A DNA stretch of 64,000 nt from Staphylococcus sp. IVB6240. Lineage in GTDB: Bacteria; Bacillota; Bacilli; Staphylococcales; Staphylococcaceae. The stretch lies in the NCBI RefSeq assembly GCF_025558425.1, contig NZ_CP094718.1, positions 248,001-312,000 of the forward strand, in the 5' to 3' direction. Position numbers and translations under genes: made by a program. This document shows, piece after piece, positions 6,965-16,964 of the stretch (position 1 is the first letter of the stretch; every line of letters begins with the position of its first letter). Under the pieces are notes generated by a model, which saw only the letters and a list, made by a program, of their open reading frames with translations, was not told the DNA's origin and did not search any database.

Positions 6965-8326
6965 ATGGCGAAAAAGAAAGTAACCTTTGAATGTACAGCG
7001 TGTGGTTATCAATCTCCCAAGTGGATGGGTAAGTGCCCAAATTGTGGCGCATGGAATAGTATGGAAGAGACGATTGAACAGAAGACAACGAGTGCGAAAC
7101 ATGGTGTACGCTCTGAATCAACAGCAAAAGTTCAAAAATTGAATGATGTGAAACAAGAACAAGCACCTCGTATTTTGACGAAAAGTCGAGAATTAAATCG
7201 TGTATTAGGTGGGGGCATTGTCCAGGGGTCACTTGTATTAATCGGTGGTGATCCAGGAATTGGGAAATCAACCTTGTTATTACAAATGTGTGCGTCATTA
7301 TCTAAAGAACGTAAGATTCTGTATATCACAGGTGAGGAATCATTAAACCAAACAAAATTGCGCGCAGATCGTTTAGAAGAAGATGCGAGTGCTTTAAATG
7401 TTTTTGCGGAAACGAATTTAGAAATTATTCATGAAGCCGTGAAAAAATTAGAGCCAGAGTTGATTGTTGTCGACTCGATTCAAACGATTTTTCATCCAGA
7501 TATTACATCAGCGCCAGGGTCAGTGTCACAAGTACGAGAGAGTACACAAAGTTTGATGCATATTGCTAAACAAATGAATGTGGCGACATTTATTGTAGGT
7601 CATGTGACAAAAGAAGGTCAGATTGCAGGGCCACGTTTGTTAGAACATATGGTAGATACTGTTCTCTATTTTGAAGGGGACGAGCATCATGCGTATCGTA
7701 TTTTACGCGCGGTGAAAAACCGTTTTGGTTCTACAAATGAAATGGGCATTTTTGAAATGAAACAGTCAGGGTTACATAGCGTTGTGAATCCATCAGAAAT
7801 GTTTCTGGAAGAGCGCTCATCTAATGTGCCAGGATCGACAATTGTTGCTACGATTGAGGGGACACGCCCATTATTAATTGAAGTTCAAGCACTTGTTACA
7901 CCAACTACCTTCAACAACCCACGTCGTATGGCAACGGGGATCGACCATAATCGCTTAAGCTTGTTAATGGCTGTGCTAGAGAAGAAAGAAGGCTACTTGT
8001 TACAACAGCAAGATGCCTATATTAAAGTGGCAGGGGGCGTGAAATTAACAGAGCCTGCTGTCGACTTAGGGATTATTATCGCGACAGCAACAAGTTTCAA
8101 AGATCGTGCTGTAGATGGTTTGGATTGCTTTGTAGGCGAAGTGGGGCTTACAGGGGAAGTGCGACGTGTGTCACGTATTGAACAACGTGTGCAAGAAGCA
8201 GCTAAGTTGGGATTTAAACGTGTCATTATTCCTCAAACAAATATCGGGGGATGGACGTTCCCTGAAGGTATTGAAGTAATTGGTGTCACGTCGGTACATG
8301 AAGCATTGAAATATGCGTTGAAATGA
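6965..8326 (+). CDS. radA: RadA (Sms), DNA repair and recombination ATPase
   Basis: Branch-migration helicase-like protein of 453 aa acting in recombination. An N-terminal four-cysteine zinc finger (C10, C13, C24, C27), RecA-like core with Walker [10 protein letters not shown] (94-102), the RadA-specific KNRFG motif (about 251-255) and a C-terminal Lon-protease-like domain are all seen. Downstream, ispD follows after 43 bp. The disA and yacL genes found here in Bacillus, and the yacL-like PIN/TRAM gene I recall here in S. aureus, are absent. Confidence 0.96.
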
Positions 8327-15334: not shown

Positions 15335-15341
15335 TTGAAAG

Positions 15342-15407
15342 GTCTCGATTTGATTTTTTGGGAGGATATTCATACGCTAATATCCCACCCTGTAAATAAA
15401 GCGAGGC
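15342..15407 (+). promoter_or_regulatory. Predicted sigH leader structure hiding the ribosome site
   Basis: G15342-UCUCG pairs with CGAGGC (15402-15407), the only Shine-Dalgarno-like sequence before sigH. Inside it, GGATATT (15364-15370) pairs with AATATCC (15379-15385). Both helices would keep sigH translation low. An inverted repeat repressing sigH translation has been described in S. aureus; identity with that element is inferred. Confidence 0.55.
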
Positions 15408-15413
15408 GATTCA

Positions 15414-15996
15414 ATGAATCAAATTGAAAAATCCCCATGTCCTTATCTTCCAGCTTCCTCGGCTAGTGAATTCCACCACCTAGAACTACAACTGAAAGAT
15501 ATCCGAAAGCGGGCGACCCAGTCTTTTGATGATTTTAGTATTCATGATTATGAGCGTGAAGACTTAGTTCAAGAGACGGTCATTCGCTTATATCAAAAAT
15601 TATGTCATTCTCCTGAGACGCACTCAGCCCCCTTTGAACATTACATCAATCGAACAATTCGTAGACGCAAGTTAGACTATCGACGCAAAAAAAATGAACA
15701 GACAACGTATTTTTGATTTGTATATGCAATCTACACAATATCAAAATGCTTACAAATGTCATGTTTATGAAAATCCGGTAGATGCAGCCATTTACAATGA
15801 TATGTTATGTTCGGTAAATAAAGAGTCATTTAGAACATTTACACCAATTGAAAGACAAGTGTGTGAATATTTATACCAAGAGTGGAAACCGGCAGAAATA
15901 GCACGAGAGATGGCATTGCCCCCAAAGAAAATATATAATACGATCTACCGTGTACGAGAGAAATTGAAAGCTGTATTGCATGTGAATGTAGATTGA
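15414..15996 (+). pseudogene. sigH: sigH, competence sigma factor, split by a frameshift at A8
   Basis: Sigma-70-family factor SigH by position and content. Frame 1 (15414-15716) covers region 2-like sequence (YEREDLVQETVIRLYQKL) and stops soon after a run of eight A at 15687-15694. A second frame (from 15694) continues with a region 4-like helix-turn-helix (TPIERQVCEYLYQEWKPAEIAREMALPPKK) to 15996. Removing one A joins them into 193 aa, near the S. aureus SigH length. It may be a true pseudogene, phase-variable, expressed by slippage, or a sequencing error. Confidence 0.8.
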
Positions 15997-16415: not shown

Positions 16416-16964
16416 ATGTCTGAAGATTTCGGTGCGAAACATTGGTATGCAGTTCATACCTATTCAGGATATGAGAATAAAGTAAAACAAAATTTGGAAA
16501 AACGTGTTGAGTCTATGAATATGACTGAACAAATTTTCCGCGTTGTGATTCCTGAGGAAGAGGAAACACAAGTAAAAGATGGTAAAGCAAAAAAATCAAT
16601 GAAGAAAACATTCCCAGGGTACGTACTAGTAGAATTAGTTATGACAGATGAGTCTTGGTACGTTGTACGTAATACACCTGGTGTAACAGGTTTTGTTGGA
16701 TCAGCAGGGGCAGGTTCTAAACCGAACCCATTATTACCTGAAGAAGCACGCTTTATCTTGAAACAGATGGGCATGAAAGAAAAAACAATTGATGTTGAAG
16801 TTGAATTAGGCGAACAAGTACGTGTTACTTCTGGCCCATTTGCAAACCAAGTTGGTGAAGTAGAAAGTATTGAAGCAGACAAATTCAAATTGACAGTATT
16901 GGTAGATATGTTTGGTCGTGAAACACCAGTTGAAGTAGAATTTGACCAAATTGAAAAACTTTAA
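16416..16964 (+). CDS. nusG: NusG, transcription elongation factor
   Basis: 182-aa factor binding RNA polymerase and influencing pausing and termination. The NGN domain (WYAVHTYSGYENKVK to about residue 120) and a C-terminal KOW domain (VRVTSGPFANQVGEV) are present. Start after a GAGGAGATG site; operon with secE. Confidence 0.96.
   Translation: MSEDFGAKHWYAVHTYSGYENKVKQNLEKRVESMNMTEQIFRVVIPEEEETQVKDGKAKKSMKKTFPGYVLVELVMTDESWYVVRNTPGVTGFVGSAGAGSKPNPLLPEEARFILKQMGMKEKTIDVEVELGEQVRVTSGPFANQVGEVESIEADKFKLTVLVDMFGRETPVEVEFDQIEKL

What the first reader, a model, noticed from the sequence alone, without database searches (positions are those of the whole stretch)
15414..15996. sigH interrupted at an A8 run: phase variation, slippage or decay
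Two frames joined by removing one A give a 193-aa SigH with regions 2 and 4. Homopolymers of this length are prone to replication and transcription slippage, so this could switch competence genes on in a subpopulation. Staphylococcal sigH is already known as cryptic with rare activation.
Basis: partly seen in the sequence, partly recalled or inferred. Interest (0 to 1): 0.7.

Follow-up and report, generated by a model that had tools for sequence, protein, structure and literature searches.

The report
Broken competence sigma gene, decaying pathway
In this Staphylococcus strain the gene for the sigma factor that switches on DNA uptake is split in two, and three other DNA-uptake genes are broken as well, so this looks like recent loss of the ability to take up DNA rather than a hidden on/off switch.

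Summary
sigH is split at an A8 run (15687-15694) into a region-2 piece (15414-15716) and a region-4 piece (15694-15996). An intact 193-aa SigH from the same or a very near species exists (P0003: 99/100 to the C piece, 88/100 to the N piece).

Decay explains it best. In the same chromosome comK1 and comGF are each in two frames and comGA has an in-frame TAA at codon 108. Among 185 sister-conserved genes compared, interior breaks fall in 4 of 14 competence genes and 0 of 170 others, one antisense ORF dropped (Fisher P 2e-5). Random assembly error would not cluster so. Of 88 A8-or-longer runs in the chromosome, only sigH's breaks a gene.

An intact, almost identical ComGA (P0015, origin not shown) suggests that the loss is recent. 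A switch at sigH alone could not restore competence here, and the nearest sisters lack the A run. sigH is broken in 3 of 83 genus genomes, by three different lesions. This is ordinary pathway decay, mildly interesting for its recurrence.

The parts
15414..15716 (+). sigH N piece, 100 aa: sigma region 2 (first frame), ends at TGA shortly after the A8 run
   Evidence: Pfam Sigma70_r2 E 6e-8
15687..15694 (+). A8 run at which the two frames part
   Evidence: longest A run in the 30 bases at this site is 8 here and at most 7 in the 83 other aligned copies
15694..15996 (+). sigH C piece, 100 aa: sigma region 4 (second frame); its ATG is inside the A8 run and has no Shine-Dalgarno-like sequence just upstream (by eye)
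   Evidence: Sigma70_r4_2 below cut-off; 99/100 identical to intact P0003
15360..15390 (+). inverted repeat in the sigH leader (GGGAGGATATT...AATATCCCACCC), similar in kind to the 13-base leader repeat of S. aureus sigH
   Evidence: sequence; leader 15336-15440 folds with z -1.86, 7 of 200 shuffles as stable; S. aureus element: passage in PMC3486894
14813..15334 (+). upstream neighbour (yacP-like, 173 aa), open
   Evidence: name from recall
16416..16964 (+). nusG, downstream neighbour, open; used as anchor for named relatives
   Evidence: name from recall

Best explanation
sigH in this strain is a young pseudogene and one of at least four lesions in the competence (DNA-uptake) pathway. The likely course is that competence lost its selective value, or became costly, in this strain. 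An A-rich codon stretch after region 2 lengthened to A8 by replication slippage and broke the frame, while comK1, comGA and comGF were lost by other mutations. The product is a region-2 fragment without the region-4 half that recognises -35 elements, so SigH-dependent comG and comE transcription should fail; even if it did not, the ComGA pilus ATPase is cut at codon 108. Shown: the four breaks, intact near-identical alleles of SigH and ComGA elsewhere, and no interior breaks in the 170 other genes counted. Inferred: the order of events, the loss of function, the conspecific status of those alleles, and the cause.
For: comK1 in two frames; comGA in-frame TAA at codon 108 and comGF in two frames. 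Identities from sister ORFs: ComGA to ComGD over NCBIfam cut-offs, ComGE and ComGF just below (47.3 of 49; 69.5 of 80); ComGF and ComK over Pfam cut-offs. Background: 185 of 222 sister ORFs had a co-located homologue; 4 of 14 competence genes have interior breaks against 0 of 170 others, one antisense ORF dropped; Fisher P 2.2e-5, or 2.8e-4 with sigH left out. Intact ComGA P0015 (contig of 2.26 Mb) differs from the own sequence at the stop and one other residue. Intact SigH P0003. Across the genus, broken sigH and broken comGA coincide in G000 and G007: hypergeometric P 0.005, or 0.009 if G031 is counted broken, of 82 genomes.
Against: The genus association without the own genome has only P 0.07. 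S. xylosus NJ (G082) has a broken sigH but an intact comG operon, and G056 has a decayed comG and comK1 with sigH open. In this strain comGB to comGE, comEC, comFA, comFC, coiA, dprA and comK2 still read open, so much of the pathway remains. The blocks compared were chosen round competence genes, and 37 of 222 sister ORFs had no qualifying homologue and were not judged. The sources of P0015 are not shown, so that it comes from another strain is an inference. No reads were seen and only one genome of this species was read as DNA. SigH may have duties outside competence.
Confidence: 0.86

Rival explanations
1. The A8 run is a contingency locus: replication slippage reversibly switches SigH, and thus competence, on and off in the population.
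For: An intact allele of the same or a very near species exists (P0003); S. aureus sigH has been described as contingency-like, through a reversible duplication (passages in PMC3486894 and PMC7911514).
Against: comGA, comK1 and comGF are also broken, so switching sigH would not restore competence. The nearest sisters L002-L005 have no long A run here. The tract is one of 88 runs of A8 or more in the chromosome.
Confidence: 0.05
2. RNA polymerase slips on the A8 run and makes some messenger of another length, giving a little full-length SigH from the broken gene (as for C. rodentium tssM1).
For: Slippage on A runs is established. Nine bases is the length at which selection against it shows in many bacterial genomes, eight is suggested for IS elements of Deinococcus and Nostoc, and a human gene with a run of eight A yields about a tenth full-length product (passages in PMC1088944). 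tssM1 has 11 A (passages in PMC4256274).
Against: Eight is at the low end for bacteria; the tract is not conserved; the rest of the pathway is broken too.
Confidence: 0.04
3. The A8 is an assembly error and the strain's sigH is intact.
For: Single-base errors in A runs are typical of long-read-only assemblies (general knowledge); how this genome was sequenced is not known to me; P0003 is intact.
Against: 47 of 88 A8+ runs lie inside long open frames; taken as 0 broken of 47, the upper 95% bound is 6%. 0 of 170 non-competence genes show interior breaks. The comGA lesion is a nonsense codon, not an indel.
Confidence: 0.05
4. The two pieces are made as separate proteins that work together, like the two-part sigma SigO/RsoA of B. 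subtilis (recalled).
For: The break separates region 2 from region 4, and the C piece has its own ATG. In two other genomes sigH breaks at nearly the same place.
Against: No Shine-Dalgarno-like sequence before the second ATG (by eye). The relatives' breaks are a stop codon and a 97-base deletion, not a conserved split. The pathway is broken elsewhere.
Confidence: 0.01

Closest known systems
Staphylococcal SigH (competence sigma factor)
   Same: Position upstream of rpmG/secE/nusG, region 2 and region 4, leader inverted repeat; the N piece finds a relative in 83 of 84 genus genomes
   Different: Not one open frame; split at an A8 run
Prophage-disrupted comGA in S. pseudintermedius ST71, and prophage-disrupted comK in L. 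monocytogenes (passages in PMC7029219)
   Same: Strain-level loss of a competence gene while other strains of the species keep it
   Different: Here small mutations in four genes; the sequences across the breaks show no inserted prophage
S. aureus sigH duplication switch and leader control (passages in PMC3486894)
   Same: sigH as a locus whose activity varies within a species
   Different: There a reversible tandem duplication and a leader element control an intact gene; here the gene is broken
Transcriptional slippage genes: Thermus dnaX, C. rodentium tssM1 (passages), Shigella mxiE (recalled)
   Same: A-run at a frame change
   Different: dnaX has 9 A and tssM1 11; here 8, not conserved, no evidence of use
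B. subtilis SigO/RsoA two-part sigma (recalled; search listing only)
   Same: Region 2 and region 4 on separate ORFs
   Different: Here a recent break, no ribosome-binding site by eye, no conservation

Membership tests
Staphylococcal SigH | sigma-70 region 2 and region 4 | tested here: inconclusive
   Region 2 over cut-off; region 4 below cut-off in the C piece and in intact P0003, over it in sister L002; the homology of both pieces to intact SigH is clear
Staphylococcal SigH | One open frame of about 190-220 codons | tested here: not met
   Two frames; 80 of 83 genus genomes with a match have an open frame of at least 170 codons
Competence pathway decay | More than one gene of the pathway broken in the same strain | tested here: met
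   sigH, comK1, comGA, comGF
Competence pathway decay | Intact alleles in other strains or near relatives | tested here: met
   P0003 for SigH, P0015 for ComGA, both taken as same or very near species by identity; comK1 and comGF intact in sister species G074, not tested within the species
Phase-variable contingency locus | Tract maintained in relatives | tested here: not met
   Longest A run in the 30 bases at the site: 8 in the window, 7 in 11, 6 in 8, 5 or less in 64 of 84 aligned copies; L002-L005 have A5 or less
Phase-variable contingency locus | Frequent reversible length change in one population | not testable with these tools
   Needs reads from many colonies
Phase-variable contingency locus | Switching restores a working function | tested here: not met
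   For competence: comGA, comGF and comK1 also broken; other roles of SigH not tested
Programmed transcriptional slippage | Conserved frame break at the tract | tested here: not met
   Of the 82 other genomes compared, two are broken, one by an in-frame stop and one by a deletion, none at an A run
Two-part sigma (SigO/RsoA type) | Second ORF with its own translation start signals | tested here: inconclusive
   ATG present, no Shine-Dalgarno-like sequence by eye

The most novel reading that the evidence does not exclude
Loss of competence is actively selected in staphylococcal strains. In at least two lineages (this strain and S. auricularis DSM 20609) sigH and comGA are both broken while close relatives keep intact copies. 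In three lineages, by three different lesions, sigH is cut within the ten residues after region 2, which would leave a region-2 fragment that might still touch core RNA polymerase and act as an off-switch.
Probability: 0.1. Interest if true: 0.55.

Novelty: new member of a known kind. Interest (0 to 1): 0.3.

Why it matters
It shows that a tempting homopolymer 'switch' in a master regulator is, in context, one mark of a pathway being lost. That check (are the target genes still working?) is cheap and should precede a phase-variation claim. The recurrence of broken sigH, comK1 and comG genes in several staphylococci bears on why natural transformation is found in some strains and not in others.

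Tried and rejected
A search with the N piece alone in the protein collection gave no hit (1 candidate, none scored); the collection's length rule hides full-length proteins, so I searched with an intact sister SigH instead. I suspected that comK2 was missing, because the Pfam search did not list it; a search with the sister's protein found it open at 73% identity. The named-genome scan was capped at 80 of 384 loci and may leave out records near the window's genome.

Background comparison, sister to own: 15 of 185 genes flagged. Four are the competence breaks; ten are stops within 30 residues of the start or within 10 of the end; one ORF is antisense to another. Reverse control, own to sister: 3 of 185 flagged; two are stops at residues 2 and 3, and one 101-aa ORF in the comE block with two stops was not followed up. 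Short genes under 100 aa were outside this count; comGE was judged apart and comGG was not judged.

Searches for print on competence pseudogenes or sigH frameshifts in staphylococci. No listed title or abstract start described this case; the library lacks most subscription papers. Structure prediction was not used, since it would not separate the explanations.

Full report
What is there. The window is part of a 2,195,277-bp Staphylococcus chromosome (genus neighbours). At 15414-15996 two overlapping 100-aa ORFs in different frames meet at an A8 run, 15687-15694. The first carries sigma region 2 and the second a region-4 match below the Pfam cut-off. A metagenome protein of 193 aa, P0003, matches the C piece at 99 of 100 residues and the N piece at 88 of 100, the mismatches including residues after the run. 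So an intact allele exists in the same species or one very near it.

Is the A run special? In 84 aligned copies (the window's and 83 others from 82 genomes), the longest A run in the 30 bases at the site is 8 in the window only, 7 in eleven and 6 or less in 72. The closest sisters L002-L005 have A5 or less. The chromosome has 88 distinct A8-or-longer runs; 47 lie inside open frames of at least 150 codons, and sigH is the only one with a two-frame signature and no long frame across it. The tract is neither conserved nor unusual in length here.

The rest of the pathway. Competence genes were sought with Pfam and NCBIfam models and compared with sister genomes. comEC, coiA and dprA read open and pass the model cut-offs; comFC reads open but is below the strict NCBIfam comF cut-off, as in all 7 genomes searched. 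comK2 is open. comK1 is in two frames. comGA has an in-frame TAA at codon 108 of 324, and comGF is in two frames; comGB to comGE are open. Sister ORFs of the comG operon were named by NCBIfam (ComGA to ComGD over cut-off; ComGE 47.3 of 49 and ComGF 69.5 of 80), ComGF and ComK by Pfam.

Background. Sister G074 ORFs of at least 100 aa were compared with the own genome in six blocks (the window, 80, 60, 20, 12 and 8 kb; about 244 kb). Of 222 such ORFs, 185 had a co-located homologue at 50% identity or more over 70% of their length; the other 37 were not judged. Interior breaks (two frames, or a stop more than 30 residues from the start and 10 from the end) are in 4 of 14 competence genes: sigH, comK1, comGA and comGF (comFA, comEA and comEB are counted by position). 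They are in 0 of 170 others, after one ORF with a stop was dropped because it is antisense to another. Fisher P is 2.2e-5, and 2.8e-4 without sigH, which was the reason to look. The blocks were chosen round competence genes; the other genes in them were not chosen. The lesions are thus concentrated in one pathway. Random assembly error would not do this, and the comGA lesion is not an indel.

Age. The intact ComGA P0015 (six member sequences, longest contig 2,261,574 bp; sources not shown) is identical to the own sequence at 322 of 324 positions: the stop and one other residue differ. If it is, as I take it, another strain of the species, the loss is recent and not shared by the whole species.

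The genus. comK1 is broken in 2 of 84 by the listed matches (G000, G056). comGA is clearly broken in G000, G007, G056 and G046, partly matched in G031 and not found in G064. Broken sigH and broken comGA coincide in two genomes (P 0.005, or 0.009 with G031 counted; 0.07 without the own genome). G082 has an intact comG operon and G056 an open sigH with decayed comG, so the two do not always go together. The three sigH breaks lie within residues 93-102 of the sister protein; if uniform, P is 0.007 to 0.014, but this is post hoc with n = 3.

Mechanism. S. aureus comG and comE are under SigH and ComK (passage in PMC12570499). Without region 4 the fragment should not recognise promoters (general knowledge of sigma-70 proteins). 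A change of tract length could at most affect SigH, not ComGA, ComGF or ComK1. Decay explains all four lesions with one cause; phase variation, slippage and a two-part sigma explain only one of them.

Against this reading. Most competence genes examined are still open, only one genome of the species was read as DNA, no reads were seen, the origin of P0015 is not shown, and SigH may have other duties. These limits hold the confidence at 0.86.

Noticed in passing
   Followed up: partly
   Followed up: partly
L334 (G056): comGA with 6 stops against G026, comGC with 3, comGF in two frames and comK1 split, yet sigH open: competence decay that spares sigH.
   Followed up: partly
   Followed up: no
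window 15360-15390: Inverted repeat just upstream of sigH, similar in kind to the leader element that represses S. aureus sigH; the sisters' leaders look weaker by eye.
   Followed up: partly
G021:C1: Two matches to sigH at 7406-7582 and 2676629-2676805, near the two ends of the contig; perhaps an assembly overlap of a circular chromosome.
   Followed up: no
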